A DNA stretch of 64,000 bases, taken from NCBI GenBank assembly GCA_028285035.1, contig JANQQF010000038.1:248001-312000 (forward strand), written 5' to 3'. The first letter of the stretch is position 1; each line of letters starts with the position of its first letter. Below the pieces are notes generated by a model. The model saw nothing but the letters and a program-made list of their open reading frames with translations. It searched no databases and had not been told where the DNA came from. The position numbers and the translations under genes are program-made. Source of the stretch: Phycisphaerae bacterium. GTDB taxonomy: Bacteria; Chloroflexota; Anaerolineae; 4572-78; J111. Shown piece after piece: positions 35,116 to 63,448 of this stretch.

Positions 35116-35128
35116 GATAAAATACCTC

Positions 35129-38374: not shown

Positions 38375-39106
38375 CTATTGTTGGCAGCAAACTTGGTCAA
38401 TAAATTGGGTGCAAATTGGAGACATATCTGGTAAAGGGAGGTTGATTTCTTGCAATGCTAGTGCTAATTCATTCACTGGAAAGCCCATAACACTAGCAAA
38501 GCACCCATCTAAGTGAGCGACAGGGGCAAATGATTGATTTTGAATCCCGTAAGCGCCAGCTTTGTCAAGCGGGTCTTTGCTCACAATATATGCCTCAATT
38601 TCTTCATCCGTGTAGGGACGCATTTGGACTGTACTGCGGTGAAGTTTTGTCGTCAGGAGAAGACTTTTTGGTGAATGGATATTTAGCTGGTGAGCTAAAT
38701 AGGCTGAAACTGCAATCGTTAATCCTGAGTAAACTTGATGCGGTTCTTGGCGTAATGCTTTTAACATCAGGCGTGCTTCCGCTTCATCTTTAGGTTTCCC
38801 CAAAATTTTGTGCTTTTGAGCGACAATCGTATCGGCAGCTATTACCACAGCTCGGTTGTGAGGTTTATTATTTAGTCGCTCAGATGGAACATTATGTAGC
38901 TGTAGAGCAACTGCTCTGGCTTTCATCTGGCTAAGACGTTGAACGAGATCACTTGGCTTTTCATTCGGGAGCGGGGTTTCATCAACATCTTCTTCAGACG
39001 ATAACGTTGAGGGGGGAATAACAACAAAAGGGTAACCTAGGAGCGCCATAAAATCTTTACGGCGAGGTGAACCAGACGCTAGGATAAAAAAGATATCTTC
39101 GATCAT
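38375..39106 (-). CDS. maf: Maf family nucleotide pyrophosphatase
   Basis: The 243-aa protein hydrolyses non-canonical or pyrimidine nucleoside triphosphates (house-cleaning activity). ASGSPRRKDFM (10-20), VVIAADTIV and DKAGAYGIQ are the family motifs. It is longer than the usual 190-200 residues, with an insert near residues 40-85 and another near 135-160. ATG 39106 overlaps the stop of the receiver-kinase gene by 4 bp (ATGA), so it is the last gene of the signalling operon. Confidence 0.92.
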   Translation of the reverse strand: MIEDIFFILASGSPRRKDFMALLGYPFVVIPPSTLSSEEDVDETPLPNEKPSDLVQRLSQMKARAVALQLHNVPSERLNNKPHNRAVVIAADTIVAQKHKILGKPKDEAEARLMLKALRQEPHQVYSGLTIAVSAYLAHQLNIHSPKSLLLTTKLHRSTVQMRPYTDEEIEAYIVSKDPLDKAGAYGIQNQSFAPVAHLDGCFASVMGFPVNELALALQEINLPLPDMSPICTQFIDQVCCQQ

Positions 39107-40456: not shown

Positions 40457-42133
40457 TTATCTGACATCACTGATACGGGCAAACAACTCTTCTTCCATAA
40501 ACTCTCCCTTTTGTAGCAAAGACTCAACTTTACCAGAGAGGCGTTTATAATCATTATTTGTCAGATCCTTTGCAGTAATCACAATGACAGGGATATTTCG
40601 TAGACCTTCATCGGCCTCCATCATATCAAGCACAGCAAAACCATCCATTTCAGGCATCATCAGATCCAGTAGAACCAAATCCGGCTTTTTAGACCGAATT
40701 AACTCAATGCCTTTTGCTCCGTCAGGCGCTTCATCAACATTATAACGGCGATATTCTAAAATACGGCGAAGTAGGACACGAGCATCTGGCTCATCTTCAA
40801 CAATTGCAATATTTTGAACGCGATCATCTAACCGTTCTAATGCAGTTAGGAGTCCTTCTTGCCGCGGAGCAGGACTGTCTAGCTTGGTATTTTCAATTAA
40901 CTCTTTTTCAAGAGTTTGGAAGCGAGTATGTGAAGCCACACTTTTGCTTTCCAAGATATGTTTTTCAATGGGGAATGTGTGCCCTGATGTATTTACGACA
41001 ACAGTTTCTTCTGGAGCGATAATTTGCTTTTGTAACATTTGGATCAACCCAGCGCAAGCAACTGCTGCCGCAGGTTCCATTGATAGCCCCTCAAATTGAG
41101 CCATATCTCGCATTGCTTTGAATGACGCTTGATCTTCAACCTTTTCAAATGCGCCGCCATGTTTCAGGGCAATCTCTCGCAGTTTCTGATAGGCGGCACC
41201 AGGCGCACCTGTCGATAAAACATTGATGACACTTGAGGGATCGGAAACAACCTCGCTGACTTCAAGGCCTTTGTGGAAACTATCAACCATTGGGGCACAT
41301 CCAGCCGTTTGAATCACAGCAATTTTTGGGATTTTGGAGATAAACCCCATTTGATACAATTCATGGAACCCAGACCAAACCCCGATAGGCCCCATACCGC
41401 CACTGACGGCTTGAATGTACCAATCTGGAGCATCCCAGCCAACCCCTCTTAATCGACCTAGCTGTTCAGCAATTTCAAAAGCAACGGTTTTCATTGCTTC
41501 ACGTGCAGCTAAACTGCGCACACCCTTGTCTACAAATATATTTTTATGCCGAGCAAATTGATTGGCCACCTCTTTAGTTTTGTCGTAAGTACTATCAACT
41601 TTGACGACGTTAGTACCATACAGCCGAACCTCTCGTTCTTTTTCATGAGGTACCTTTTGTTCTAAAAAGGCCCATAAACGCATGCCTGATCGAGCACAAT
41701 AGGCGGAGTAAGAAATGGCAACGTTACCAGTGGATGCAACGACCAGCTTCTTGATGCCCTCTTCTTTCATCACTGAGATAGCCAAAGATGCTTGACGATC
41801 CTTGAAGGAGGCGGTTGGACCTTGTCGTTCGTCCTTTATAAAAATATTATAATGGCCGAGCATTGCCCCTAAATGCTCAACCTGTAGAAGCGGTGTCCAT
41901 CCTTCACCCATACTTACAATATTTCGCTGTTGAAGGAGTGGAAGAAGCTCCCAATAGCGCCACATGGTTCGATCTCGATCTGAAAGCTCCTGCCTCCACC
42001 TTGTAGCTGCTCCTTCAAGATCATAAATAGGATCTAGCCATCCACCATCACAATTTGGGCAGTTTGTAATAAGGCCTGAATATTTTTGAGTATACCCACA
42101 CTTAACACATCTGATAGAGAAATTTTTGGTCAC
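40457..42133 (-). CDS. threonine-synthase-like PLP enzyme fused to a C-terminal receiver domain
   Basis: The 558-aa protein begins with a zinc ribbon (Cys9, Cys12, Cys25, Cys28) and a fold-type II PLP domain with Lys111 in GPTASFKDRQASL, STGNVAISYSAY and VSGGMGPIGVW. This part (to about 430) looks like threonine synthase, which makes threonine from O-phosphohomoserine; related enzymes act on other amino acids. Residues 440-558 form a full receiver domain with Asp446/Asp447-type acidic residues, phospho-acceptor Asp490 (LVLLDLMMPEMDG), Thr520 and Lys522. Its C-terminal pattern (AKDLT, LLQKGEF) matches the last receiver of the giant kinase next door. A metabolic enzyme carrying a receiver inside a two-component operon suggests direct phospho-control of catalysis, or reuse of the fold as an effector. 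ATG 42133 is 18 bp after the kinase gene. Confidence 0.9.
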   Translation of the reverse strand: MTKNFSIRCVKCGYTQKYSGLITNCPNCDGGWLDPIYDLEGAATRWRQELSDRDRTMWRYWELLPLLQQRNIVSMGEGWTPLLQVEHLGAMLGHYNIFIKDERQGPTASFKDRQASLAISVMKEEGIKKLVVASTGNVAISYSAYCARSGMRLWAFLEQKVPHEKEREVRLYGTNVVKVDSTYDKTKEVANQFARHKNIFVDKGVRSLAAREAMKTVAFEIAEQLGRLRGVGWDAPDWYIQAVSGGMGPIGVWSGFHELYQMGFISKIPKIAVIQTAGCAPMVDSFHKGLEVSEVVSDPSSVINVLSTGAPGAAYQKLREIALKHGGAFEKVEDQASFKAMRDMAQFEGLSMEPAAAVACAGLIQMLQKQIIAPEETVVVNTSGHTFPIEKHILESKSVASHTRFQTLEKELIENTKLDSPAPRQEGLLTALERLDDRVQNIAIVEDEPDARVLLRRILEYRRYNVDEAPDGAKGIELIRSKKPDLVLLDLMMPEMDGFAVLDMMEADEGLRNIPVIVITAKDLTNNDYKRLSGKVESLLQKGEFMEEELFARISDVR

Positions 42134-42151: not shown

Positions 42152-45100
42152 CTATAGTTTGATGACATCTTTTTGTTGAATTTGATTTAAGGCGCGTTGA
42201 ACATCTTGAAGTAATTCGTTTTCTGTGAAAATGTTTTTATGTAACAGAGCTTCAACCTGGCCATTAAGGAACTTACTTTCTTTTGGTGTTAGATCCTTGG
42301 CACTAGCAATAATGATTGGAATGGAGCGAGTTTCTTCTTTATCTTTGAGCGTTTCAACAACCTTAAATCCATCCATTTCAGGCATACTCAAGTCAAGAAT
42401 AATTAGATCTGGCCTATCTTGTTGGACAAATTTTAGACCATCTTGACCGCTTTGAGCTTCGTGAATGATGTAATTTTGTTGCGCTTCAAGCATGCGTCGG
42501 ATGAGTAGAATATCATCCGCCTGATCATCAATGACCAAGACCTTTACTTGATCTTTATCATTATTGTGGATATGCTCAAGGGCTTTTAAGAGATCGTCTT
42601 CCGTAATTGGTTTGTTTAAGTAACCTGTGGCACCTAATGAGAAACCACGTTTTCTATCACTCACCATACTACAAATAATAACGGGGATAGCCTCTGTCGT
42701 TTGATCTTTCTTTAACTCACGTAGTACAGACCAGCCGTCTCGATCTGGCATGAGTACATCAAGTAAGATCGCCGCTGGATTAGCATCTTTAACCTGCTGA
42801 AGAATGTTTTCCCCATTGCTAATACCGATTAATTCGTATCCCTGTGCTTCTAGAAATCGCTCATACAAACTAATGACGCTTGGATCATCATCAATGGCAA
42901 TGATCGTCTTATTATGTTCTTCCAAGTCAGCTAAAGCCTGTTGTAAGGGCATTTCAATTTCATCAACCATATCTTGATTGATGGGGATTGATACTTTGAA
43001 GATGGACCCTTGCCCACCTCCCGACTCAACCCAGATTTTTCCTTGATGTAGTTCGACAAAATGTCGGCTGATAGGCAAGCCGAGACCTGTCCCCCCAACT
43101 TTTCGAGTGGTACTAGCATCAACCTGAGTGAATTCCTCAAAGATACTTTCGTGATCCTCTTGGGGAATACCTATACCAGTATCTGTCACACTAATCGTAA
43201 GCCATTTGTTGTCTGTGGTTGCTTGGAGAAGAACATAGCCTTCATCAGTGAATTTACAGGCATTGGATACAAGATTAAGAACAATCTGACGTAGTCTTGT
43301 TGGGTCAGCTTGGATGACAGGAAGATTTTCTTGAACATCCTGTTTTAATTCAACAGGTTTATCTTTTACCAGCGCGATAGCGGTTGACATAACCCCTTTG
43401 ATAATCGGCTCAATTTCAACATCTTCAAAATTAAGCTCCATCTTACCTGCCTCAATTTTTGAAAGGTCTAGGATGTTATTAATTAATCCCAACAAATGTT
43501 GCCCACTATTATGGATTGAGGTCAAGTCAGTTTTTTGTAATTCTGTTAATGGCCCATCAATTCCTTTCAGAATCACTCGGGAGAAACCAATAATTGAGTT
43601 CAAAGGTGTACGTAGCTCGTGGCTCATATTGGCCAGGAATTGTGTTTTTAACTTGTCAACCTCTTTTAATTTTTCTGTTGTTTCCTGTTGCTCTTTAAAG
43701 GCTCGTGCATTTTGAATAGCGATAGCAATTTGGTCGGCTAGAAGCTCCATTGTGGCGATATCGCTGTCTGAGAAAGCCTCTGGGTTTTCACTATGAACAT
43801 CTAGAACACCGATTTGTTGGTCCCCAACTTGTAGGGGAATAGCTAATTCGGCTTGAGTATTTGGTAGAAACTGTTGATAATATGGTGTGTCAAAATCAAC
43901 CGGGTTAGCATCTCGAATTACAATGGGCTCTGTTTGTACTGTTGCTTGCCCAATAATACCTGCACTACCTAACTTAACTTTATAATTTGTTGCGAGTAGT
44001 TGTTCACCAACATCTCCGGTGCTCCTGTCTAAGAATGCGATTTGATTTTCCTGATCAATTAAGAATATCTGTACGTGGTAGAAGCCAAATCGCTCTTTAA
44101 TCAGCTCTACAGCTTGATCAAGCATCTCATCCAAAGCGAGAATAGATGTTGCTACCCGGCCAACATCGGCACTTGTACGTAGCTGAAGGGCACGCTCATT
44201 AGTTTCTTCCAGAAGACGATGGTTCTGTAGGATGATGGCCAATTGATCGGCCATTGCGCTGGCTAGGTTAATTTCCCATTCGGTGAAATGATGCTTTTCA
44301 CCAACAGCATCAGCTCCAATCGCCCCAATGACTTGATCATCAATGATGATTGGTACTAACAATAATGAAGCCACGCCACGTTGTCGATTTATATCTCGCA
44401 CTGTTTCAACAAGAGGATCATTCATGACATCTTCAATGGGAAGAGGTCTTTTTGTCTCGATGAGACGATCATATGAGGCATTCCCTTCAATAGGAATAAC
44501 TTGGTTTGTTTTGACTGGCTGGCCATTTTCGAACAAAGCCCTTAAGGATCCTAATTTTCTGTCTTTATCAAAGAACAAAATGCCACCTTGGTTTAGACCA
44601 AGCGTTAACAGCATTTTTTCTAAAACGATATGAAACATTTTCTGTTCGTCTTCGGCAGTTACCAAAGTTCGGCTAACTTGATACAGCGCTTCAGCCTCAT
44701 CACGGGATGTTTGTGTTTGTTCAAACAATCTAGCTGACTCAATGGCTTGGGCTGCTTGATTGGCGATTGCTTCTACAATTTTGACGCGATCTTCTTCCCA
44801 AGCACTGTCATTTGTTTCCATTATCTCAAAATCTAAGGCCCCGATTGAAACACCATCCTGCAGATTGAGAGGCGCAGCTAAGGTTACTTGGCTTTCAGTC
44901 GACTGATTCCCTTTAGACGGAAGATAAAGCTGGAAAGCTCCCTGCTTGTTCCGTTTTTGTGGCGAAGTGAAAGTTATGCCGTTCTCTTCAGAATGAGAGG
45001 AAATGATGATCGGATCTTTTTCGGCAATAACGCGACTGGCAATCGGTGACCACTCTTCTTCCTCGGTTTGAAACATGCCATCAGATGTGAACTGGTAGCC

Positions 45101-48100
45101 AATACTTTGTCGATGTTTATTTACGAACTCTTCCCACTGTTCCTGTACATAGTACTGAGTCATGTTCTGCATTTCATCAAGAGTTTCTTGCGTTTTTTGC
45201 GAAGCAAGTGCAGCAGAGATTGCGTTGGCTAATTGATTAGACATTGATTGCAAGATAGTGATGTCAGCCTCGCTAAAGGCGTTTTTTCGAGTACTTTGCA
45301 CATCTAACGCCCCAATGACTTCTCCCCCGGCGACAAGTGGCAAAGCCATCTCGGAACGGGTGTCTGGGAGCAATGGATTTTTGTAGTGCCCGCCATCCTC
45401 CCCAACATCGACAGCAATTCGCGGCTGTTGGGTCCCCGTAGCTGTCCCAACAATACTTCGACCGCCAACTTCTAGCTTATGCTGCATTGTTAACATTCTT
45501 TGACCAACTTCGCCAGTCGAAGCCTGAACAACTGCATATTTTTTGTATTCATCAATCAAGAATATCGAAACGTGGTGAAAGTCAAATCGGTCTTTTATCA
45601 GATCAACAGATTGACTCAACATTGTATCAAGATCGAGGAAACGTGTTGCCGCTGCAGATACTTCAGATGCAGTTTGTAACAATGTGGCTCGATATTGAGC
45701 CTCCTTGAAAAGGCGTTGATTTTCCAAGGCCACAGCTATTTGTCGTCCAATGTCTTCGTATAAGCGAACCATCTCTATGGGGAAGCTGCGTTGACTACTG
45801 TGACAAACGATGATAAAACCTACAATTTCTCGATTACGCCAAATTGGTACTGAAATCAAACTTTCAATCTCCAATTTTTTGTATAAAGCTTTTTCTGACG
45901 TAGAAAATCTTTCATCAGTTGCTACTTGAGGGGCAATAACCGTTTGTTCACTTTGATGGAGGTAACTGGTCTCGTAACTTTCTAAGGCAAAACGATGACC
46001 ACGTTCCATCGTCACCCAGTCACGCGCTGGATTATCCCAAACAGCCACGATATTTAATTCTGTACTGGTGTCAGTCGCTTCATACATCAAAATCGCAGCG
46101 CCTCGCTCGGGCTGTGTAGCGCAGATGGCGTCTAATCCTAAATCATAAATAACTTCGGATGTTTCAGCCCCTAACAAATCTTGACTGAGATGTGATAGTG
46201 TCTCTGAGTAATACAGAGTTTGTTGTGTCTCTTCAACGAGCTGTAGGTTACGCAGGACAACTGCAACTTGACCAGCTAAGGTTGTAATTTGATTTACAAA
46301 TTGATGATTGGCCTCAAAATTATTTTGTTGACTGACACAGAGCAAGACACCTAACCAAGTTTGCCCGACTCTTAGGGGCACTGCAAAAATAGATTGAGTG
46401 TCACCAAAAATTTGACCAAGATTTGTTTGAGTCGTCTCATTTAATTGAGAGGTAGTAAAAATAGTGGTTTCTTCGGCCTTTAAATGTGGTAAAAAATTAT
46501 ATTCCTTGGCTGTCATAACCCGGTCCATGGCCGATAAACCATTTGTTCGGCTCCAATGGGCTACAACTTCTAATTGTTCGGGGGCACCAACCTCAGTTTG
46601 TGTTAAAAGACCAATAACTAAGCTATCTAACCCTACCTCTTTTTTTGTAATTACACTTTCTGCAAGGGCATCTAAGAGTTCTTCAGGCTGCTGAGCGATA
46701 CTAAACTCGCGTGTCGCATCGTATAATAGCTCTGTTTCTCTCAATGCAGCCTCAGTTTGTTCACGTAACCACAAGTTTTCCAGAATAGCCACAGTTTGAG
46801 TAGCGATGCCCTTTAACATTTCAACGTGATTAGGTGAAATGTTATTAGAGTCGTTATAGAAAAATGTTAATACACCACGTAGACTGCTATGGCGGGCACT
46901 AAATGGTAGTGCGATTACCGATTGTACGGGATTTAAGCTCTCAAACCGAGACAAATCTAACTCTATTTGTGAGCGATTTTTAATGACAGTTTGTTGGTCT
47001 GCTAGGGCTTGAGGTTCCAACATGGGGGAAAGGGTGTTGTAAACAGGTAGGTCAATATTAGTTTCCACATTAGATTTACGCTCTGGAATTGTTGTATCCC
47101 AACGATCAAAACCGTCTCGATCTGTTAGATATATTTCACCAAAACTGGCTCCGACCAACGCTGCGAAGCTCAAAATAATTGTTTGGGCCTCTGTAATTGT
47201 GCTGGCTTGACTTAAGTTTTGATCAATCTCAACAAGAAGAGCCGCCTGATCCCGCTCAGCTTGAATGGAGTCGAATAGTTCGCGGTTTTCAATCGCAGCG
47301 GATAAATGGAGGGCCATCTGCCCAAATAATCCTTCATAATGTGATCCATAAGCCTGTGGTTGGTGGTTTGCTACATTTAGTGTCCCGATCACCTTTCCAT
47401 CAACGACAAGAGGGGCCATCATACAAGAGCGTAATTTTTGTTTTCCCAGCATTTGTAAATCACGAAACTGTTGCCATTCTTCATCAAGAAAATCACTGAC
47501 AACAACAATTTTGCTTTGGCCAACAACTACCTCAGATAGTGTGCCTGTAATTGGAACTTGTGGGCCTAAGGAAATTGAATTGTTTCCATCCAAAGCAGCC
47601 GCTCTAATTTTTTCTCCATCTGCATCGAGTAATCCAATGCCACCGCGATCACCGGCAAATATCTTTGTCACCATTTTTGCCGCAACTTGGAAGATTTCAC
47701 CACGATCTCGAATAAGACTTAACTGTCGACTCATTTCATTGAGTTGGGCCAGTCGTTCGGTTTGTAACTCAGTTTGTATAAGCGTTGCCTTAGTTTGCTC
47801 AAATAATCTTCTGTTTTCAATAGCAATGATTGCCTGACCGGCCAAGGTTTGATAAACACGTTTCTCTTGCTCACTATAAATGTGTGGTGTACGAGTAGAT
47901 ACAGACAAAACACCTTTATACTCTAGGCCCAAAAACATTGGCGTTGAATACAAAGTTATGGCTCCAATGCCTTCATGCATAAACAATCTGAAATTTTCGT
48001 CCATTCGTTTGTCTAACTGGTTGGGACTACTCAAATCTTCAGAGATGAGTGGGTCAAATGGTGGCTTGGCAAAAGATTCAACCAATGGAAACATTGATGC

Positions 48101-49801
48101 GGTAATCTTTGAGCCTACTGGCAATATTTGATCCGATTCTTTGTCCCAACTTGCGACAATCGTAACTGCTTCAGCTGTCAAATTTTCATTATTTTGTAAT
48201 ATCGCTGGATCCAAAAGTGAGATACTGACACGATCAACATTAAATTCTTTGACGTGGGTCAAGACAACGTTAAAAATTTCATCTAGGTCATTTGTTTCAA
48301 CAAGTGCTCGACTTATCTCATACAATTTTTGCGTTTCAGCCAAGGCAGCTTCTGTTTTCTGGAATTGCAAAGCATTATCAATAGCCACAGCAACCTGGGC
48401 GATAATAGCTTGAGCTACCTGTAGTTCGTTTGAATTGTAAGCTCGATCAGCATCATAGTGCCCGATTTCTAATAGGCCGATAACCTCATTACGGACGAGA
48501 AGGGGGAATATGGCCACAGTTAATAGGCCCATCTCTTTATGTCTGGCTTGACGATCAAGTAGATTATCTTGCTGTAAGGTTTCTATTAAAACAGTTGGTT
48601 GGGTTAATAGTTTGGACAAACTGGCATCATTTGTCGGGGAAACGTGAGACGCACGATTTTGAAATAATAGTTTGTTATTTTCTCGGACCATTACTCGTTG
48701 TCCGATAAATGTATTGGTTGTTGAGTCTAATAAAATTACCCCACCTTGATCAGCCTGCAAATAAATCATCATCTGTTCAGTTAAAATACCGTAGATTTGT
48801 TCAAGATCTATGGTTTCAGATAGTCTTTGGCTGGCTGAAAATAGTAGAGATAACTCTTGCGTCTGGGCCTGAGTTTGCTGAATAAGTCGAGCATTCTCTA
48901 AGGCTAACGCAACCTGAGTGCTCACCTCCTCTAATAAACGCTGATCATCGGCTGTCCATTCATCTTGCTCTAAATCACTAGCAATTCCCAAAACACCAAT
49001 GGTTTCACCGTATAACTGAATAGGGGCTACTAACTCCTTAGCTTCTGAATTATGATCATTAGCCAAAACTTCGGTATTCTGTTTAGCGATTGCCAAACGA
49101 GCCGTTGAACTGAGTTCATCAGAAACAATGATTTCGTTGTTTCGGTTATAACTGTAACCCACCCCTGAAATGGGATCGACCCCACTTTGGCCGTGCCCAA
49201 TATCTGTCTGGCGTTGTAAGTTATAAAGAATTCTTATTTCTTGTAGATCGTTTTCTAGCTCTTCAACAGTTTGATTGTGACGGATTGTTGTTGCCATTAA
49301 GTGAGCTAGGGTATCCAGAAATTGACGATCTGCTGGCGGGAAACTTGCTGTTTTGTCATGTTGAACTCGAAGAACACCCAGAATGACTTCATCCTCACTA
49401 GCAGCTAGTGGCAAGGCAATCTCTGATCTTATTGGTGTTGCCTCTGGTGCGGGCGCCTGTGTGGCATAAGGCCCTTTATGCAAATTTGTGATATAGATGA
49501 TTTGTTTTTTGCGAACAGTATCACTAACAATGTTTCGGGTTTCAATCGAAAAGATGTCAGGTAGATTTATGATTGTTAAATCAGTCTCGCCAACGGCTAA
49601 GTATCGCCACAAGTCCTGTCCATAGGGTGAGAGACGATAGATTTGAGCCGTTTGATAACCTAGCTGAGCATGTAGTGCGTTTAAGGTTGCTTCTAGTACT
49701 TGCTCGGTTTTATCGCCACGAGCTAAACCTTGGCTAAGATTTTCAATTATTTTTAGTTGACCACTATGCTTATCGCGACGAGATGTTGTGCGTTGGCTCA
49801 T
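42152..49801 (-). CDS. giant multi-GAF hybrid histidine kinase (about 12 GAF, HisKA, HATPase, two REC)
   Basis: The 2549-aa soluble protein is an array of about twelve GAF domains. Each ends in a helix like QxAxAIENARLF and is joined to the next by a coiled linker. HisKA follows, with His2061 (NMSHELRTPLNS), then HATPase (FTQVDASTTRKVGGTGLGLPISR) and two receivers with Asp2348 (LLDVLMPDRDG) and Asp2470 (LDLSMPEMDG). The two receivers suggest an internal phosphorelay. No membrane segment is seen, so ligands are intracellular. Two GAFs are of a subclass shared with the neighbours. ATG 49801 overlaps the stop of the upstream GAF gene by 4 bp. Confidence 0.92.
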   Translation of the reverse strand: MSQRTTSRRDKHSGQLKIIENLSQGLARGDKTEQVLEATLNALHAQLGYQTAQIYRLSPYGQDLWRYLAVGETDLTIINLPDIFSIETRNIVSDTVRKKQIIYITNLHKGPYATQAPAPEATPIRSEIALPLAASEDEVILGVLRVQHDKTASFPPADRQFLDTLAHLMATTIRHNQTVEELENDLQEIRILYNLQRQTDIGHGQSGVDPISGVGYSYNRNNEIIVSDELSSTARLAIAKQNTEVLANDHNSEAKELVAPIQLYGETIGVLGIASDLEQDEWTADDQRLLEEVSTQVALALENARLIQQTQAQTQELSLLFSASQRLSETIDLEQIYGILTEQMMIYLQADQGGVILLDSTTNTFIGQRVMVRENNKLLFQNRASHVSPTNDASLSKLLTQPTVLIETLQQDNLLDRQARHKEMGLLTVAIFPLLVRNEVIGLLEIGHYDADRAYNSNELQVAQAIIAQVAVAIDNALQFQKTEAALAETQKLYEISRALVETNDLDEIFNVVLTHVKEFNVDRVSISLLDPAILQNNENLTAEAVTIVASWDKESDQILPVGSKITASMFPLVESFAKPPFDPLISEDLSSPNQLDKRMDENFRLFMHEGIGAITLYSTPMFLGLEYKGVLSVSTRTPHIYSEQEKRVYQTLAGQAIIAIENRRLFEQTKATLIQTELQTERLAQLNEMSRQLSLIRDRGEIFQVAAKMVTKIFAGDRGGIGLLDADGEKIRAAALDGNNSISLGPQVPITGTLSEVVVGQSKIVVVSDFLDEEWQQFRDLQMLGKQKLRSCMMAPLVVDGKVIGTLNVANHQPQAYGSHYEGLFGQMALHLSAAIENRELFDSIQAERDQAALLVEIDQNLSQASTITEAQTIILSFAALVGASFGEIYLTDRDGFDRWDTTIPERKSNVETNIDLPVYNTLSPMLEPQALADQQTVIKNRSQIELDLSRFESLNPVQSVIALPFSARHSSLRGVLTFFYNDSNNISPNHVEMLKGIATQTVAILENLWLREQTEAALRETELLYDATREFSIAQQPEELLDALAESVITKKEVGLDSLVIGLLTQTEVGAPEQLEVVAHWSRTNGLSAMDRVMTAKEYNFLPHLKAEETTIFTTSQLNETTQTNLGQIFGDTQSIFAVPLRVGQTWLGVLLCVSQQNNFEANHQFVNQITTLAGQVAVVLRNLQLVEETQQTLYYSETLSHLSQDLLGAETSEVIYDLGLDAICATQPERGAAILMYEATDTSTELNIVAVWDNPARDWVTMERGHRFALESYETSYLHQSEQTVIAPQVATDERFSTSEKALYKKLEIESLISVPIWRNREIVGFIIVCHSSQRSFPIEMVRLYEDIGRQIAVALENQRLFKEAQYRATLLQTASEVSAAATRFLDLDTMLSQSVDLIKDRFDFHHVSIFLIDEYKKYAVVQASTGEVGQRMLTMQHKLEVGGRSIVGTATGTQQPRIAVDVGEDGGHYKNPLLPDTRSEMALPLVAGGEVIGALDVQSTRKNAFSEADITILQSMSNQLANAISAALASQKTQETLDEMQNMTQYYVQEQWEEFVNKHRQSIGYQFTSDGMFQTEEEEWSPIASRVIAEKDPIIISSHSEENGITFTSPQKRNKQGAFQLYLPSKGNQSTESQVTLAAPLNLQDGVSIGALDFEIMETNDSAWEEDRVKIVEAIANQAAQAIESARLFEQTQTSRDEAEALYQVSRTLVTAEDEQKMFHIVLEKMLLTLGLNQGGILFFDKDRKLGSLRALFENGQPVKTNQVIPIEGNASYDRLIETKRPLPIEDVMNDPLVETVRDINRQRGVASLLLVPIIIDDQVIGAIGADAVGEKHHFTEWEINLASAMADQLAIILQNHRLLEETNERALQLRTSADVGRVATSILALDEMLDQAVELIKERFGFYHVQIFLIDQENQIAFLDRSTGDVGEQLLATNYKVKLGSAGIIGQATVQTEPIVIRDANPVDFDTPYYQQFLPNTQAELAIPLQVGDQQIGVLDVHSENPEAFSDSDIATMELLADQIAIAIQNARAFKEQQETTEKLKEVDKLKTQFLANMSHELRTPLNSIIGFSRVILKGIDGPLTELQKTDLTSIHNSGQHLLGLINNILDLSKIEAGKMELNFEDVEIEPIIKGVMSTAIALVKDKPVELKQDVQENLPVIQADPTRLRQIVLNLVSNACKFTDEGYVLLQATTDNKWLTISVTDTGIGIPQEDHESIFEEFTQVDASTTRKVGGTGLGLPISRHFVELHQGKIWVESGGGQGSIFKVSIPINQDMVDEIEMPLQQALADLEEHNKTIIAIDDDPSVISLYERFLEAQGYELIGISNGENILQQVKDANPAAILLDVLMPDRDGWSVLRELKKDQTTEAIPVIICSMVSDRKRGFSLGATGYLNKPITEDDLLKALEHIHNNDKDQVKVLVIDDQADDILLIRRMLEAQQNYIIHEAQSGQDGLKFVQQDRPDLIILDLSMPEMDGFKVVETLKDKEETRSIPIIIASAKDLTPKESKFLNGQVEALLHKNIFTENELLQDVQRALNQIQQKDVIKL

Positions 49802-52800
49802 TGGTCACTCCTTTTTTGATCATGCTTATCGTGCCCATTGATTGGCGGCAAAAGATTGATGTATGCCTTTTGGCTAGATGTAGCTGCCCTGATTTCTCGG
49901 ACAGTGGTTTGTAGAATGGTGTCAATATCTGTTGAGGCCCGAACCCTGGTGGTAATTTCTTTGATCAATGCTTCCCTACGCGCTGTTCGTTGACTCTCTT
50001 GATATCGCCAAGCATTATCTAAAGCTAATGCTGTTTGATCGACAAATGCTCTTAATAATCCGATTTGGCTATCCTCTAAAACCTGTGATTGATTTTTAAA
50101 TCCGGCTTCTACAATGCCAATAGGTTTTTGTCGTAACATTAGAGGGGTAATTAAGCGAGTCCAGGTGTTGGCTTGTTTTACCTCATATAAATGATTTTGC
50201 AGACGTTCATCCCAGCCAGTAATGATTTGGGTTTGCCCTTCCTGCATTACTTCAATGGCAAGACTTGTTTCCAAAAGCATTTTTTGTTGATGTAATTTTA
50301 ATTCACTGATCCCAACATTATTAATACTTGAAACTGTATGTTCATTTAGATCAATTTGAGCAAGAATAACATATTCAAAGCCGATAACTCTAGTACACGC
50401 TCGGAAGAAAATATCCAGAATTTCATCAACTTGCAGGGTTCCTGATAAAGCTTGGCTCAACTGCTGTAAAGCAATTGTTTCATGCAGCCGCTCTTCAGCT
50501 TCTTGTTGAGCCTGTTGGGACTCCTCAAAAAGTCGAGCATTAAGAATAGCGTTAGCGACTTGATCCGCCATAATTTGTAGAAGGGTAATGTCCTCTTGGG
50601 AAAAGGCTTCCCGTTGTTCACTTTGAACTGTCAACGCCCCAATGACTTCGTCTCGGCTGATTAAGGGTAGGGCCATTTCAGATCGTGTTTCAGGTAAATC
50701 TGGATTTTCAAAATGGACCGCCTCCTGCCCCACATCAAGCGCTATTCTTGCTTCACGATTAGAAACACTCCAACCGATCATTGAGTCTCCACCAATTTGA
50801 AGCCGGTGATTTTTTGCGAGTTGCCGACGTCCTGGCTCACCTGTTCCCGCCCGTAACACCGCCCATTCATTAGCTGGATCAATAAGGAATAACCCGACAT
50901 AATAAAGGCCAAACTGATCGCGGATCAAATTAACTGACTTGTCGATAAGCTCATCCTCATTAAGAATTGAACTGGCTACTCGAGAAACTTCAGCCCCGAT
51001 TTCTAGTAACGATGAACGCCGTTGAGTTTCTTGCAACAGACGCCTATTTTCCAACCAAATCGTTAGCTGATCAGCCAATAACTCGCTAACCTCTAGATCT
51101 TGATCAGAAAATTGATAATTGGGATCACTTGTAGCGACTCCTATAATTCCAATAACATTGTCTTTTACGGTTAGCGGGGTAAATAAGACCGCCTCAATAT
51201 CATCTTGACTGTATTGATAACCTGCGGTGAGTGGATGCTCTTTTACATTTTCAATAACAAGCGGCTCAGTATTTTTCCTTAAATAATCTGCAATCTGATC
51301 TTGATCTGCTAAAAAATTAAATGATGGGATTTCTTTTTGACCATCAGCATAAAACGCTGATACTTCGTGAATAACGTCCTGTTTATCTAATAAAATCAAG
51401 CTACCACGTTGTAAGCCCAAGAGATTTAGATACTCTTGTAACACTATTTCAAAAATAGTATCTTGATCACTATGGGCGACTAAAGTATTACTAATGTGAT
51501 GCAAAGATTGTGTTCGTTTAAATGTAGTTTGTAGGGCGGTTTCAGTTTGTTTTCTTTCTGTGATATCTCGTAAGATAGAAACTAGCCCTGTAATGTCCCC
51601 ACTTTTATTTTTGATTGACGCGCCACTAATCAGCATATCTAACACTTGATTTGTCTTTGTGAGACGTTTTGTTTCGTAAAGTACCGTTTCATGACGTAAC
51701 ATTCGCTGAAATGCATCTTCTGTTTCAGCTTGACTGTCCTGAGGGATAAAATTGAGGGGCTGTCCCAGTATATCTTTTATTGACCAACCGAATGTTTGTG
51801 AAAATGCATCATTGATGTATGTAATATTCCCTTCGGGGTCATACATAACGATTGGGTCTGGTGATGAGGTTAGCAATAAACGATACCGCTCTTCACTATC
51901 TCGTATTGTATCTTCAGCGCGTTTACGTTCAGTAATATCTTCGATGGCAATTTGTTGCCCTACAATTTGATCTTTATCATCCTGAATCGGGCGTAGTCGT
52001 AAACTTGTTGAAATGACCCGTCCGCTGGCCCTTGTCATCTCTACTTCTTCACCTTGAACTATATCACCCTCAATTAAACGCTGATGAAATCTTTCAGCTT
52101 TTGGCTTTCCTAGCGGCGTATCCGCGTACAAATCAAATATTGAGTGTCCAATGAGCTCGTCTTGATTGTATCCCAGTAAATCGGTCGTGCTGGCATTACT
52201 CATATAAATAACGCCCTGCGTATCTGTGGAAAGATAAGCAATCGGCGAGGTGTCATACAAATTGCGATATCGATTTTCACTTTCTTTAAGAACGGTTTCC
52301 ACCCGTTTTTGCTCGGCGAGTGCGATTTGAGTTTTCTCAAATAGATTTGCATTTTCAATCGAACTGGCGATTTGACTGGCGATTGTTTCTGCTAATTGAA
52401 GCTCTGCCGTTGTAAAGTCTCGATCTACTTCATCCAAGTCAACACCAATGGTTCCAACCACCTCATTTCTCACAATCAGTGGTACAATCATAATTGCTTC
52501 AGTTTCAAGTATCCGGAACATCTCTTTGACATCAGGTGTGCTTAATTCATTAGATGGAGAATATGGTTTTGATACTGCAAATGGTTGACCTTTTTTAATC
52601 ACCTCAAATGCAGAATCACCTGGTTCGATCGGAATAATAAGTCCTTCGGTACTGTCATTTTTGTGCTGTGAATAACTAGCGATTACTTCTAAGTTGGTTT
52701 GTTCATCATTGATAAGTGTTATACCACTACGCCGAGCATTGAAAATAAGTACAATTTCACGGGCGGCGGCTCGAAGCATATCTTGTAGATCCAAAGTTGT

Positions 52801-55467
52801 TGATACTGCGGCGGCTACTCGATTGATTGCAGCTAATTCTTTGTGTCGATTTAGAATTTCTTGCTCTATACGCTTACGCTCCGTAATCTCTAGTTGAGCT
52901 TTTTCAAATAGTAATGCATTTTCGATGGCATTGGCTAACTGATCTGCCATCGTTTGCAGAAAAATAATATCTGTATGGCTAAAGGCCACCTGCTCTCTAC
53001 TTTGAACCGTTAAGGCCCCAATTGCCTCATTACGATATATCAGTGGCAAAGCCATTTCAGAAGAGGTGTGGGGAAGATGTGGATTTTGAAAATGAACAGC
53101 CTCTCGACCCACATCCAAGGCAATTCTTGCCTTTAGATTTGCCAAACACTGCCCGATCATCGACTCTCCACCAATTTCAAGTCGATGCTCGTTGGCAATC
53201 TGGATTCGACCAGGTTCTCCAGTTCCTGCCTTTAGAATGGCCCACTCTTTTTCATCATCAACTAGAAATACACCGACATAATATAGCTCAAATCGGTCTC
53301 GAATTAGCTTTACAGCAGAGTTTAGAAGTTGATTAACACCTAAAATGGAACTGGCAGTTCTGGCCACATCGGCAGCCGTTTCAATTTGAACAGCTCGATA
53401 TGTGACCTCTTGTAGCAACTGACGGTTTGATAACAAAACTGATGCTTGGTCCACCATCGCTTGCCAGAACTGTTTCACAGTGTTTGTAAATTCAAATGGT
53501 TCTGCGAAATCAATGAGAATAATTCCTATATTTTGCCCCGTTGTTACTAGGGGTAATAAGGCCGTTGATACAGCCCCTCTTTGCCTAAAACTTTCACGTT
53601 CATCATCAGACAAGCGGCTATCTGTAGCTACATCTTCTAAATAAGTGGACTGGTTGACTGTTAAACAATTTGCCTCTGGGCTATCAGGCAAATAGAGACG
53701 ATCACCCGTACGGCGGGTCCACCCTGTTTGTTGTGACCAACGTGCTTTCAATTCGACCCAGATAGGCTCATCATCGACTGACTTATAATAGTATGCTGTA
53801 ATTTGGCTGGGATTTTGTAGGCGAATTTGTTTGAACAAGGCCGCAAAAACTTGGCGTTCACTCAATGCACTCGCGATAGTTTGACTACCGTTGTACATCA
53901 TTGCCATTTCATTCAGTAAGCGTTCTCGTTCGGCTTCACGAGCACGTCGTTCAGTAATATCTTGGCTGATCCCCAATAAATATTGAGGTTGTCCATTATT
54001 ATCAGGAATGGGAATCAATCGGGTATAGGCGATGTGGGCTTCACCGTCTGCCCAAGTTGTTTTATCCTCAAAAGTTAGGGTCTCATTTTTTGTGAAGACT
54101 TGATCATCACGTCTGTAAAATTCGTCGGCTAGTTCTTTAGCAAAGAAGTCATGATCTGTTTTCCCAATTACATCCTCAGTTGGCCGTCCTACGACAGCCA
54201 AATTGGCTGAATTCATCTCCACCCAAGTATGTTGACGATCTTTGATAAAAATTGGGTCTGGAATATGTTCTAATATTGTTTTTAAGAATCGACTATTATT
54301 TTCAGCCTGATTGAATAAATGTGTGTTTTCTATAGCAATTGCTGCTTGTGAGGCTAATAAAGATAAAATATGAAGGTCGTTATCATCAAAGGGATTGGCC
54401 TCATCAAAATGTTGTACTTCCATTGTTCCAATGGCTCGGCCTCGTAAAACAATGGGAACATGCATCAAAGCTTTAATTTCCTCATCCATAATTGCTTTAG
54501 TCGGAAAGTGTTCCCCAAGCGCATGTTGCGACCATTGATTACCTAATACGGGCTGCTTTGTTTGCAGTACGTGTTGTTCTAAACCTGAAATTTGTCCTTT
54601 ATCTCTTTTTACAACAGATTTATTGGGAATGAGTGTGGTAGCACTCCATCCAGTAATTTGATCTCGATCAGGATCAATCAAATAGACTTGACTTGCTTCA
54701 GCCCCAGTTAGCTGCAAACTTAGATGAGCCAGATTATCAAGTAAGGCGTCGAAATCAAGGTTGTGATTATGTAATTGCAAGTTGATGTTTAGATGACTAC
54801 CAACTTGTAGACTGATGTGATACAACGTAGCAAGCTGCTCAAGTTGTTCATCAATAGTTGAGAACAAGCGGGTCGTTTGTAAAGCATTTGCAACTTGGGC
54901 GGCAAGCGTTTGCAAAGCTGTTAGGTTATCAGGATGAAGAGGATCAACCCGATGAATTAGGATACACCCTAAAGCATCTCCACGGCTCAGGAGAGGCAGG
55001 GCTAGCCCGATACCAACTTTATCGGCGGGAAAAAGAGTTGGTTGTTGTCGCAAAATAGCTCGACCAATTGGGGTTGACTCGTCTATCTTGGGTTTTTCAG
55101 GGGCAAGTTCAATGGGTAAGCTAGGTTCTGTTTGGGCTTTTCGTTCAGCCTGTTGACCAGTCGCATCAAGTAAATACAAAGCAACCGGTGTTCCGGCAAA
55201 GTGTTGCTGAACAATCTCGACCAAATTGGGGCGTAAATGCTCTGGCCGTGAGATTGTATCAGTCACTTCAGCTATGGCTGTCGTTGTATCAAGGACACGA
55301 TCCTGTTGTTGAATATCTTCGGCCAATCCATGAACTTCTTCCTTTAATGCCGACCATATACGACCAATTTCAGATTGATCATTATCTAATTCTGGCAGAT
55401 GACTTACCATTTGCCCAAGGTATTCTTCTATTGTACCTAAACGTGTACGCTTTACGGACTCAGTCAT
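49798..55467 (-). CDS. giant GAF/PAS sensor protein without kinase domain (about 8 GAF, 3 PAS)
   Basis: The 1889-aa protein contains about eight GAF domains and three PAS domains: one after the second GAF (TILEHIPDPIFIKDRQHTW) and a pair near residues 1080-1310, each followed by a DITERK linker. It ends in a half GAF-like segment (ARREALIKEITTRVRASTDI) and has no HisKA, HATPase, GGDEF or output module. It is probably a scaffold or sensory partner for the kinase encoded immediately downstream, with which it overlaps by 4 bp. ATG 55467 is 9 bp after the stop of the other GAF protein. Confidence 0.88.
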   Translation of the reverse strand: MTESVKRTRLGTIEEYLGQMVSHLPELDNDQSEIGRIWSALKEEVHGLAEDIQQQDRVLDTTTAIAEVTDTISRPEHLRPNLVEIVQQHFAGTPVALYLLDATGQQAERKAQTEPSLPIELAPEKPKIDESTPIGRAILRQQPTLFPADKVGIGLALPLLSRGDALGCILIHRVDPLHPDNLTALQTLAAQVANALQTTRLFSTIDEQLEQLATLYHISLQVGSHLNINLQLHNHNLDFDALLDNLAHLSLQLTGAEASQVYLIDPDRDQITGWSATTLIPNKSVVKRDKGQISGLEQHVLQTKQPVLGNQWSQHALGEHFPTKAIMDEEIKALMHVPIVLRGRAIGTMEVQHFDEANPFDDNDLHILSLLASQAAIAIENTHLFNQAENNSRFLKTILEHIPDPIFIKDRQHTWVEMNSANLAVVGRPTEDVIGKTDHDFFAKELADEFYRRDDQVFTKNETLTFEDKTTWADGEAHIAYTRLIPIPDNNGQPQYLLGISQDITERRAREAERERLLNEMAMMYNGSQTIASALSERQVFAALFKQIRLQNPSQITAYYYKSVDDEPIWVELKARWSQQTGWTRRTGDRLYLPDSPEANCLTVNQSTYLEDVATDSRLSDDERESFRQRGAVSTALLPLVTTGQNIGIILIDFAEPFEFTNTVKQFWQAMVDQASVLLSNRQLLQEVTYRAVQIETAADVARTASSILGVNQLLNSAVKLIRDRFELYYVGVFLVDDEKEWAILKAGTGEPGRIQIANEHRLEIGGESMIGQCLANLKARIALDVGREAVHFQNPHLPHTSSEMALPLIYRNEAIGALTVQSREQVAFSHTDIIFLQTMADQLANAIENALLFEKAQLEITERKRIEQEILNRHKELAAINRVAAAVSTTLDLQDMLRAAAREIVLIFNARRSGITLINDEQTNLEVIASYSQHKNDSTEGLIIPIEPGDSAFEVIKKGQPFAVSKPYSPSNELSTPDVKEMFRILETEAIMIVPLIVRNEVVGTIGVDLDEVDRDFTTAELQLAETIASQIASSIENANLFEKTQIALAEQKRVETVLKESENRYRNLYDTSPIAYLSTDTQGVIYMSNASTTDLLGYNQDELIGHSIFDLYADTPLGKPKAERFHQRLIEGDIVQGEEVEMTRASGRVISTSLRLRPIQDDKDQIVGQQIAIEDITERKRAEDTIRDSEERYRLLLTSSPDPIVMYDPEGNITYINDAFSQTFGWSIKDILGQPLNFIPQDSQAETEDAFQRMLRHETVLYETKRLTKTNQVLDMLISGASIKNKSGDITGLVSILRDITERKQTETALQTTFKRTQSLHHISNTLVAHSDQDTIFEIVLQEYLNLLGLQRGSLILLDKQDVIHEVSAFYADGQKEIPSFNFLADQDQIADYLRKNTEPLVIENVKEHPLTAGYQYSQDDIEAVLFTPLTVKDNVIGIIGVATSDPNYQFSDQDLEVSELLADQLTIWLENRRLLQETQRRSSLLEIGAEVSRVASSILNEDELIDKSVNLIRDQFGLYYVGLFLIDPANEWAVLRAGTGEPGRRQLAKNHRLQIGGDSMIGWSVSNREARIALDVGQEAVHFENPDLPETRSEMALPLISRDEVIGALTVQSEQREAFSQEDITLLQIMADQVANAILNARLFEESQQAQQEAEERLHETIALQQLSQALSGTLQVDEILDIFFRACTRVIGFEYVILAQIDLNEHTVSSINNVGISELKLHQQKMLLETSLAIEVMQEGQTQIITGWDERLQNHLYEVKQANTWTRLITPLMLRQKPIGIVEAGFKNQSQVLEDSQIGLLRAFVDQTALALDNAWRYQESQRTARREALIKEITTRVRASTDIDTILQTTVREIRAATSSQKAYINLLPPINGHDKHDQKRSDQ

Positions 55468-55476
55468 ATTATAAAA

Positions 55477-58400
55477 TTACTCTTTCTGAGATCGAGGCTG
55501 AGGGGCCAAATAAATATTTCCCTTTTCGCTTCCCAAAACACGGCTTAATTCAGTCAATGTTGTCTTTAAAATCGAGTCAATATCTTTTGCTCCACGAATT
55601 TTTCCAGTTACTTCTCGAATAATTGCTTCACGTCGAGCGGTTCTTTGACTATTTTCAAATCGTTGAGCATTGTCTAAGGCGAGAACGGTTTGATCGATAA
55701 ATGATTTCAGGAGACGAATTTGGCCTTGGCGAATACTCACTGCGTTTTTAAAGCCTGTTTCTACTAAACCAATAGTTTGTTGTCGAAGTATGATAGGGGT
55801 GAATAGACGCACCCATTCCATGTGATTTTCTAACTCGAATTGTTCTGGATCAAATCGGTCATCCCATCCCGTAATTACTTCAGTCTTTCCAGTGCGAATA
55901 ATATCGGCCATGATATCTTGACTGTTTAGGGGTTTACACGACAAAGCCAGTTGTTGTTCGCTAATGCCTACCCCTGCAATCGCCCGAACTTCTGTTTCTT
56001 CGACTAAAGAAAATTGGACATATTCAAATCCGATAACTTTTGTGCAGGCCTGAAAGAACATTTCAAGAATTTCATTGACATGGAAGCTACTGGCCAAAGC
56101 TTGACTAAATTGCTGCATCGCAACACTTTCTTGGAGGCGTGTTTCGGCTTGCTTTTGTGACTCAGCTACATTTTCGAATAAGCGAGCATTTGTAATAGCG
56201 TTTGCCAACTGATCTGCCATCGTTTGTAATACCGTAATATCCTCTTGTGAAAAAGCGTTACGTTCGACACTTTGCACTGTCAATGCGCCGATTACCTCTC
56301 GTTTGCTTTGGAGAGGGAGGGCTAGCTCAGATCGTGTATCGGGTAAATGCTTATTTCGGAAAAAGTTTTTCGCATCGGCACCAACATCCAGATCAACCCG
56401 TGCCTGTCGATGCTGAATACTCCAACCAATCATGGAGCCAGAACCAATTTTGAGACGGTGATTATCGGCAATTTGGTTTTTTCCGGCTTCGCCCGTCCCA
56501 GCCTGCAATACAGCCCACCTGCGTTCGTCATCAACGAGAAACAGACCAACATAATACAATCTAAACATATCTCGAATTAAATTTACGGAGGTGACTAAAA
56601 GATCATTAACATCCAAAATAGAACTCGCGGCCCGGGACACTTCAGATGCAGCTTGTAATAACGTGGATTTATGTTGAGCCTCAGTTAAAAGTTGCCAACT
56701 TTCTAGACGAACACTTAACTGGTCAGCAATCGCTTCACCCATTTCAATATCAGCTTGAGAGAAGGTATGATCAGCTTCGGTGGCGTCCGCTGCAAACGAT
56801 CCAACAACATTGCCTTGTACGACAATTGGAATAAATAGCATTGAGGTTACATTAGTTTGGCCTCTTGTTTTGTGGCTGTTTTTGATAAAAGGATGGCCTT
56901 CTGGGTCATCGATAATTAGGGGCCCAGGTTGCTTTTGCAGCTGTTGGAATACCAAATCTTCTTCAACAGCCAGACTAAACTTGGGCGAAACCGGTTCGCC
57001 AGCAATGTAGCGAGCTTGTGCTCTAACATAGTTAGATGCTCGGTCAAATAATGTTAAACTTCCCTGTTGCAAATTCAGCAGATTGAGATATTCACCTAAT
57101 AAAGTTTCAAATGCGGTTTGTAAATCGTTTGAGGTTGCGAGTGCGTGACTGATACGGTAGAGCGATTGAGTACGCGCTAAGTTTTGTGCGGTATCTAGAA
57201 TAAGCTGTTCACGCTCTCTTTCTCTTTGTTTCTGATCAGTAATATCATTAACAACCCCAATAATAAAGTCAGGTTTATTCACATTTGATGTTAAGGATAG
57301 TGGAATTTTGCGGGTGAAATAAATACGATTTTCCTCCGCAGCATTTAGCATTGGTGCTTCGAACTCTAGGGTTTCTCCCGTCTCAAATATATGCTGATCT
57401 TGCTCTCTAAACTGCTTGGCAACCTCTTCTGATCGAAATTCATAATCTGTCTGACCAATAAGGTCGGTCTCTTGTTTGCCAAGCATATTGTTGGCGTAGG
57501 CTTGATTCACCACTGTTAATTCGTAGTTCTGATTTTTGATAAAAATTGGATCGGGGATCTGATCAATAATGGCCTTCATAAAGGTTTCACTCTCTTGAGC
57601 GGCCTGGAATAGTCTAGCATTTTGAATTGCATTAGCTGCTTGTAGGGCAATCGAATCAAGAAGATTGATGTCTGCTCGACCAAGTCTTCGTCCGGACGTA
57701 TGGTCATAGACCTCTAAGACACCAATTACTTGATTTCTAAGAAGAACGGGGATTAAACCCAAAAGGGACCCGTTATGCTCTGTTAAATATTCATATTCCC
57801 AACGATCTTCTGATAGATCATCAGGATAACAAATTATTTCTTCTTTGGTTGCTAACACTTGTTTAAGTGCGACAAAATCCTCTATCTTATAGCGGTCTCC
57901 CTGATCACTTTCAAATGTAGAGTCTGGTCGCACATAGTCGCTAATTGTTTGAGCATAGTCGCCATCAATCAGTGATAGAGCACATTCAGCGAGGTTTAGA
58001 GCAAACGCAGTTTCAACGACTAGATTATTAGCAGCGTCTTGCAAATCAAGGGTTGAACCTATTTTTGTGCCAATGCTATAAAGCGTGGCTTGTTCAGAGA
58101 GACGGCGTTGGGTTTCATCACGTAGACGGGCATTGTCTAAGGCTACGGTTAACTGATCGGCCAGAATTTGTAGGGTTTCAACATCTTCAGGTGTAAATGC
58201 ATTGGGTTCTGTACTTTGTACATCCAGAGCCCCGATTACTTCGCCCTTCGAAATCATCGGTAGCGCTAACTCCGAACGGGTATCAGGTAAGAGCGGATTG
58301 TTAAAGTGGACTTTATCTTCACCGACATCAAGAGCAATTCGTGGTTCGGCATTGCCTGTAACAAAACCAACAATCGATTTTTCCCCACCCACTTTTAGTT

Positions 58401-62737: not shown

Positions 62738-63448
62738 TTAAATAGAACTTATTAAATATCGACCACCGGCTATGGTCAATACATATTGAGGGTTACTGGG
62801 GTCTATTTCTAATTTATGCCGTAAGCGATGCACATGTACTCGGGCAATTGCTCGGGCATCTGCCTCGGTTGCCTCATATCCCCGCACTTGCTTGATAAGA
62901 TTGATTGAGTCTATTGCAGTATCTGGCCGTTTCATCAGAACCAAAAGAATATCAAATTCAGTTGGGGTTAGGTTGATAATTTCTTCATCTCGGTTAACTT
63001 GGCGATTAGCGGGGTTAAGGGTTAGATTTCTTATTTTCAAGGTTTGATCGGACACAGGGTGTGTGTTTTCCAATTGAGAGCTATCCTGACGGCTAATACC
63101 ATCTGCCACGCTGGCTAATAGCTCAGCAGTGTTAATTGGCTTTGTTATATAGTCGTGGGCCCCTTGACGTAAGGCCTCAATGGCCGAGTCAAATGTGGCA
63201 TACCCGGTCGAAATAATGACGCTAGTTTGAGGTGATTTTTTTCGCGAATGCCGAACAACATCCAACCCGTTCATATCTGTTAATCGTAAATCTACAATGG
63301 CAACATCAAAATGAGTTTGATTGATGAGATCAATCGCTGATTGTCCATCAGCTGCTTCCGTTACAATATAACCTTCTGCTTCGAGATGGCGCACCAGAAA
63401 ATAGCGAAACGTACGTTCATCATCAACAACCAAAATATGGTAGGTCAT
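62738..63448 (-). CDS. OmpR-family response regulator (REC + winged helix)
   Basis: The 236-aa transcription regulator has a receiver domain with Asp53 (VAIVDLRLTDMNG), Lys in YITKPINTAEL, and a C-terminal winged helix (about 140-236, LTPTEFDILLVLMKR, RVHVHRLRHKLEIDP, YVLTIAGGRYLI). It pairs with the histidine kinase upstream, whose stop overlaps its start by 4 bp. It is the only evident DNA-binding output in the locus. Confidence 0.95.
   Translation of the reverse strand: MTYHILVVDDERTFRYFLVRHLEAEGYIVTEAADGQSAIDLINQTHFDVAIVDLRLTDMNGLDVVRHSRKKSPQTSVIISTGYATFDSAIEALRQGAHDYITKPINTAELLASVADGISRQDSSQLENTHPVSDQTLKIRNLTLNPANRQVNRDEEIINLTPTEFDILLVLMKRPDTAIDSINLIKQVRGYEATEADARAIARVHVHRLRHKLEIDPSNPQYVLTIAGGRYLISSI

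What the first reader, a model, noticed from the sequence alone, without database searches (positions are those of the whole stretch)
40457..42133. Threonine-synthase-like enzyme with a receiver domain, inside a two-component operon
The reading frame joins a zinc ribbon and PLP domain (Lys111, STGNV and SGGMGP motifs) to a complete receiver with Asp490, Thr520 and Lys522. Receivers normally end in DNA-binding, cyclic-nucleotide or kinase modules; a PLP amino-acid enzyme as partner is rare. The receiver resembles the last receiver of the giant GAF kinase 18 bp upstream. Hypothesis: the kinase network sets threonine (or related amino acid) synthesis by direct phosphorylation of the enzyme, or the enzyme senses an amino-acid precursor and reports to the receiver.
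Basis: partly seen in the sequence, partly recalled or inferred. Interest (0 to 1): 0.82.

Follow-up and report, generated by a model that had tools for sequence, protein, structure and literature searches.

The report
Amino-acid enzyme fused to receiver domain
A vitamin-B6-dependent enzyme resembling threonine synthase is fused to the on/off switch of a bacterial signalling pathway, next to its likely sensor kinase, and this pairing recurs across one bacterial phylum, so these cells probably switch an amino-acid reaction on or off directly by a signal.

Summary
One intact 558-aa gene on the minus strand (42133 to 40457) joins a zinc ribbon, a PLP fold-type-II domain and a receiver. It is no artefact: a fusion is found in 42 of 400 phylum genomes and 144 of 396 class genomes. 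PLP-lysine and phosphorylation residues are kept in 178 of 178 aligned homologues. One detail is wrong: the conserved beta-5 lysine is Lys542, not Lys522. A same-strand histidine kinase is the adjacent upstream gene in 47 of 58 counted loci. The "threonine synthase" reading is weak, not excluded: 16 of 16 fusion genomes have a separate threonine synthase; an arginine kept in 16 of 16 stand-alone relatives is gone in 57 of 57 fusions; one loop looks more like cysteate synthase. Best reading: a response regulator whose output is a PLP enzyme of unidentified substrate, gated by the neighbouring kinase. Receivers on metabolic enzymes are a known kind; this enzyme class is a new variant. Phosphorylation and catalysis are inferred, not shown.

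The parts
40457..42133 (-). PALP-REC fusion gene, 558 aa, GTG start
42050..42109 (-). zinc ribbon, C9 C12 C25 C28
   Evidence: four cysteines invariant in 36 of 36 rows
40982..41917 (-). PLP fold-type-II (PALP) domain, residues 73-384; Schiff-base Lys111 at 41801-41803
   Evidence: Pfam PF00291 209.8 bits; Lys111 and STGN in 178 of 178 homologues; one row outside that set, L198, reads TTGN
40811..40981 (-). linker, residues 385-441, mostly low-confidence in the model; its end (about 424-440) resembles the last helix of the kinase's first receiver
40472..40810 (-). receiver domain, residues 442-554; phospho-acceptor Asp490 at 40664-40666, Lys542 at 40508-40510
   Evidence: Pfam PF00072 78.2 bits; D447, D490, K542 in 178 of 178
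42152..49801 (-). giant hybrid kinase, 2549 aa: GAF array, HisKA, HATPase_c, REC1, REC2
   Evidence: REC2 is in the same clade as the fused receivers
49798..55467 (-). GAF protein without a kinase match, 1889 aa, overlaps the kinase gene's start by 4 bases
55477..60753 (-). GAF/PAS protein without a kinase match, 1758 aa
60982..62385 (-). three single-domain receivers (148, 162 and 147 aa)
62738..63448 (-). response regulator with winged helix
   Evidence: PF00072 and PF00486
39103..40422 (-). REC-histidine kinase, 439 aa, directly downstream of the fusion
   Evidence: same position in 11 of 36 type-A loci, the window included
38375..39106 (-). Maf nucleotide pyrophosphatase
   Evidence: homologue in 6 of 7 close-relative loci L189-L195
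37100..38317 (-). MFS transporter
   Evidence: homologue in 5 of 7 close-relative loci L189-L195

Best explanation
The gene encodes a response regulator whose output domain is an active PLP enzyme. The neighbouring GAF-array histidine kinase (or its relay through the downstream REC-kinase) phosphorylates Asp490, and this changes the activity or assembly of the enzyme domain. The enzyme is a separate branch of the threonine synthase / cysteate synthase group. Its substrate is probably not O-phosphohomoserine, and its product is probably an amino acid or amino-acid-like compound, in many type-A loci perhaps handled by a transporter encoded next door. Shown: one intact frame, PLP and receiver active-site residues kept across the family, one branch holding all fusions in the tree, a conserved kinase neighbour, receiver kinship with the kinase's last receiver. 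Inferred: phosphotransfer, its effect on catalysis, the substrate, the role of the transporter.
For: Lys111, S-T-G-N, Asp447, Asp490 and Lys542 kept in 178 of 178 aligned homologues, Thr or Ser at 520, so both halves are under constraint. The 57 fusions in the enzyme tree share one 100* branch (58 of 81 rows; the 58th, L227, runs off its contig end) apart from the other stand-alone enzymes. Same-strand kinase gene immediately upstream in 47 of 58 counted loci, within 150 bases in 46. In type B and C loci with such a kinase it has no receiver of its own (11 of 11 and 5 of 5), so the acceptors at hand are the fusion's receiver and a free receiver encoded just downstream (12 of 13 and 9 of 9 loci). 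Fused receivers (38 of 38) and kinase last receivers (16 of 16) share one 99* branch. The fusion's linker best matches the helix before the kinase's last receiver: rank 1 in 15 of 29 kinases, top 5 in 27 of 29. Thirteen positions are invariant in 57 fusions and absent from 16 stand-alone relatives, as expected of a separate specificity.
Against: No phosphotransfer, enzyme activity or regulation was measured. The model gives no trustworthy domain arrangement: linker 386-423 has pLDDT under 50 and pTM is 0.68. 11 of 58 counted loci have no kinase directly upstream: two end at a contig edge (L121, L189), nine show another gene (L125, L128, L138, L142, L199, L201, L202, L203, L208). Five fusions pass the thrC cut-off of 167.1 bits (G218, G098, G120; L120, L134), so threonine synthase activity in some members is not excluded. 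Stand-alone PRK08197-type proteins, named threonine synthase, also lack three of the four Thermus pocket residues, so those three losses prove little. The linker test uses related kinases and a helix type common in receivers.
Confidence: 0.57

Rival explanations
1. It is a threonine synthase put under kinase control.
For: Best NCBIfam match is a threonine synthase model, PRK08197, 249.5 bits; best folds are threonine synthases; five other fusions pass the thrC cut-off (3; 2 of 3 tested); public annotation calls many such proteins threonine synthase.
Against: The window protein misses both the PRK08197 (303) and thrC (167.1) cut-offs; 0 of 4 fusions tested reach PRK08197. A stand-alone threonine synthase over the thrC cut-off exists in 16 of 16 fusion genomes. 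Residues aligned with N154, S155, R160 and N188 of the Thermus enzyme are kept in 0 of 57 fusions and in 7 of 7 thrC rows; R160 is also kept in 9 of 9 PRK08197 rows, the other three are not.
Confidence: 0.16
2. The enzyme domain is an amino-acid sensor that tunes the receiver, and the protein signals by protein contact rather than by making a product.
For: PLP-enzyme folds serve as sensors in MocR-type regulators (recalled). The kinases carry many GAF domains, so ligand sensing is the theme of the cluster.
Against: PLP lysine and STGN are kept in 178 of 178 homologues, which a pure sensor might not need; a transporter gene follows in 18 of 36 type-A loci.
Confidence: 0.15
3. The fusion is a regulatory partner of a free PLP enzyme: enzymes of this group are dimers (recalled), and the fusion could pair with a stand-alone paralogue.
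For: A stand-alone PALP gene is second downstream in 4 of 13 type-B loci; the one tested with NCBIfam is over the PRK08197 cut-off (585 bits).
Against: Neither of the next two downstream genes is a PALP in the 36 type-A (window included) and 9 type-C loci counted.
Confidence: 0.08
4. Assembly or frameshift artefact joining two genes.
For: None found.
Against: 120 of 120 listed proteins carry both domains; the fusion matches listed have no stop inside; one branch holds the fusions.
Confidence: 0.01

Closest known systems
Response regulators with enzymatic output domains, including REC attached to metabolic enzymes (Galperin et al. 2018, PMC5847659; passages and section 14 read)
   Same: Receiver joined to an enzyme; narrow phyletic spread
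   Different: [quoted passage not shown] 'pyridoxal' and 'threonine' do not occur in the held text. The paper is about archaea; its two bacterial review references could not be read.
Threonine synthase (thrC / PRK08197)
   Same: Fold, N-terminal zinc-ribbon region covered by the PRK08197 model, PLP lysine; STGN is shared with thrC
   Different: Pocket residues differ, C-terminal receiver added, window protein under the curated cut-offs
Cysteate synthase (TIGR03844; PDB 9k3c)
   Same: Loop resembling GxxxxAxRxxMxT and PDxYxQAVxxGxGxIxxW (weak match, E 0.014)
   Different: Whole-protein score 109.9 against a cut-off of 324.9; 0 of 8 genomes have a hit over cut-off

Membership tests
Threonine synthase | Score over the curated family cut-off | tested here: not met
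   Window protein 140.4 bits against 167.1 (thrC) and 249.5 against 303 (PRK08197). Five other fusions do pass thrC.
Threonine synthase | Pocket residues N154, S155, R160, N188 of the Thermus enzyme (roles recalled) | tested here: not met
   0 of 57 fusions keep any of the four; 7 of 7 thrC rows keep all; 9 of 9 PRK08197 rows keep R160 only.
Threonine synthase | Makes threonine from O-phosphohomoserine | not testable with these tools
   Needs an enzyme assay.
Cysteate synthase | Score over TIGR03844 cut-off | tested here: not met
   109.9 against 324.9 bits.
PLP fold-type-II (PALP) enzymes | PALP domain with Schiff-base lysine and STGN motif | tested here: met
   PF00291 209.8 bits; Lys111 and STGN in 178 of 178.
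Response regulator | Receiver with acidic pair, phospho-acceptor Asp, Thr/Ser and Lys | tested here: met
   E/D446, D447, D490, T/S520, K542 in 178 of 178.
Response regulator | Phosphorylated by a histidine kinase | not testable with these tools
   Only neighbourhood evidence: 47 of 58 loci.

The most novel reading that the evidence does not exclude
A signalling system spread through much of one phylum in which histidine kinases directly switch a dedicated PLP enzyme to make and export an as yet unidentified amino-acid-like compound, possibly itself a signal sensed back by the dCache/GAF sensors of the same cluster. The enzyme would be a new specificity branching off the threonine/cysteate synthase group.
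Probability: 0.15. Interest if true: 0.82.

Novelty: new variant of a known kind. Interest (0 to 1): 0.55.

Why it matters
It is a conserved case in which a two-component system seems to act on an amino-acid-type enzyme itself rather than on its gene. Public records call many of these proteins threonine synthase, which may be wrong for this branch. A cultured species carries one (Herpetosiphon giganteus, 100% match to L134), so both the phosphotransfer and the reaction can be tested.

Tried and rejected
Own genome: not held, so a second thrC in the window's own genome could not be tested; 16 related genomes were used instead. 'Bulk threonine synthase' was set low, not excluded. Cysteate synthase membership was tested and rejected. 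A short-profile search for the linker in 590 non-fusion proteins gave nothing significant (best E 0.45); a position test within the 29 kinases did, but those kinases are related and receiver end-helices are alike in general. Plasmids: 52 records match, none over 80% of the query, so no plasmid-borne fusion was seen. Papers: searches showed no paper on such a fusion, judged from listings; passages of PMC7090099 were seen and are unrelated; of PMC5847659 passages and section 14 were read. The Galperin 2006 and 2010 reviews are not held, so a mention there cannot be excluded.

Rows dropped: 61 loci were taken for neighbours (L120-L159, L189-L208, window). One search counted 57 because other frames hid the fusions of L124, L129, L132 and L140; one search recovered L129 (58 counted). 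The four are missing from the tree and the, 68 tables but are in the 178 rows. By, the kept frame just upstream of the fusion in L124, L132 and L140 is also a same-strand kinase. Types A, B and C were set by architecture and by eye; L208, typed A, groups with C in the tree. All trees are quick trees with SH-aLRT support only. The sample is fusion-centred and the lineages are related, so counts are not independent events; no chance level for a kinase neighbour was computed. The 47 genomes came from receiver-only hits, a biased outgroup sample. On rechecking I found that PRK08197-type proteins also lack three of the four pocket residues and that five, not three, fusions pass the thrC cut-off; I raised the threonine synthase rival from 0.12 to 0.16 and lowered the best explanation from 0.60 to 0.57 for that.

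Full report
What is there. Coordinates 40457-42133 hold one 558-codon frame on the minus strand, starting GTG at 42133. It carries a four-cysteine zinc ribbon, a PLP fold-type-II domain (Pfam PALP, residues 73-384) and a receiver (442-554). The gene sits 18 bases after a 2549-aa hybrid kinase, in a same-strand run that includes a winged-helix regulator, three lone receivers and two giant GAF proteins upstream, and a REC-kinase, Maf and an MFS transporter downstream.

It is real and common in its clade. The best 120 of 7168 database matches (one of them the window's own protein) all carry both domains. A match at E <= 1e-90 is present in 42 of 400 genomes drawn from the phylum and 144 of 396 from the class; the draws overlap, and each contains its fusion-bearing centre. 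Of 47 genomes behind receiver-only hits, one (G450) has full-length matches; its record (L021) is titled Pleurocapsa, but the genome was drawn in the same class as G010, so the record is probably mislabelled. The other 46 show no full-length match. A Herpetosiphon giganteus protein matches L134 at 100%.

Three forms exist. A: kinase usually ending in two receivers (29 of 36 loci), then PALP-REC, then an EamA transporter (18 of 36) or a REC-kinase (11 of 36). B: kinase without receiver, PALP-REC, lone receiver (12 of 13), in 4 of 13 a stand-alone PALP next. C: PALP-REC-REC followed by a lone receiver (9 of 9). A same-strand kinase is the adjacent upstream gene in 31 of 36 A, 11 of 13 B and 5 of 9 C loci; 58 of 61 loci could be counted. 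A ParA-like ATPase gene lies in 15 of the 57 loci counted, in all of them just before the kinase; Pfam confirmed the one tested. In the window's own branch, Maf is found in 6 and MFS in 5 of 7 close-relative loci.

Origin. The 57 fusions in the enzyme tree share one 100* branch of 58 of 81 rows; the 58th row, L227, is cut by its contig end. The receiver tree puts fused receivers together with the kinases' last receiver (99*, 54 of 116 rows), apart from first receivers, lone receivers and REC-kinase receivers; it has few columns. The fusion linker resembles the end helix of the kinase's first receiver. The simplest story is that a kinase tail was copied onto the enzyme once, early; this is inference.

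Both halves look functional. PLP lysine, STGN, the acidic pair, Asp490, Thr/Ser520 and Lys542 are kept in 178 of 178 aligned homologues; one row outside that set, L198, reads TTGN.

Which enzyme. Folds and profiles point to the threonine synthase group, but the window protein misses the curated cut-offs. Five fusions from other genomes do pass the thrC cut-off (three, two), none of four tested passes PRK08197. Each of 16 fusion-bearing genomes has a separate threonine synthase over the thrC cut-off. The positions aligned to N154, S155, R160 and N188 of the Thermus enzyme, whose roles in the pocket I recall, are kept in 0 of 57 fusions and in 7 of 7 thrC rows. Nine PRK08197-type rows keep only R160, so R160 alone separates fusions (0 of 57) from stand-alone relatives (16 of 16). 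In turn, thirteen positions are invariant in the 57 fusions and absent from those 16 rows: Q114, L153, W154, Y183, K187, F193, D202, G204, Q241, S244, P249, I303 and T308. The stretch around residues 193-262 matches cysteate synthase better than threonine synthase in the PDB (E 0.014 against 1.5, both weak), but the whole protein is far below the cysteate synthase cut-off. So the substrate is open, and a conserved one is implied.

Mechanism. Most likely the kinase phosphorylates Asp490 and thereby changes enzyme activity or assembly. The predicted model has a low-confidence linker and does not settle the domain arrangement. Nothing here measures phosphotransfer or catalysis.

Novelty. Receivers on metabolic enzymes are a known kind (PMC5847659, section 14). 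I found no report of one on a PLP enzyme in the listings of searches, but the two main reviews are not held. I rate it a new variant of a known kind.

Noticed in passing
window 49798-60753: Two giant GAF-rich proteins (1889 and 1758 aa) without a kinase match precede the hybrid kinase; GAF-only proteins recur upstream of the kinase in many related loci.
   Followed up: partly
L149:9785-10573: A ParA/MinD-like ATPase of about 262 aa lies directly upstream of the hybrid kinase in 15 of 57 loci, perhaps for positioning the complex.
   Followed up: partly
L199-L207: A longer paralogue, PALP-REC-REC of about 700 aa, with a lone receiver downstream in 9 of 9 loci.
   Followed up: partly
L021: Record titled Pleurocapsa minor lies in genome G450, which was drawn in the same class as a Thermoflexales genome; probably a mislabelled record.
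   Followed up: no
window 35129-36844 and 34585-35148: Frames that look by eye like the large and small subunits of acetolactate synthase (no family search run) lie beyond the MFS gene on the same strand; no link to the fusion shown.
   Followed up: no
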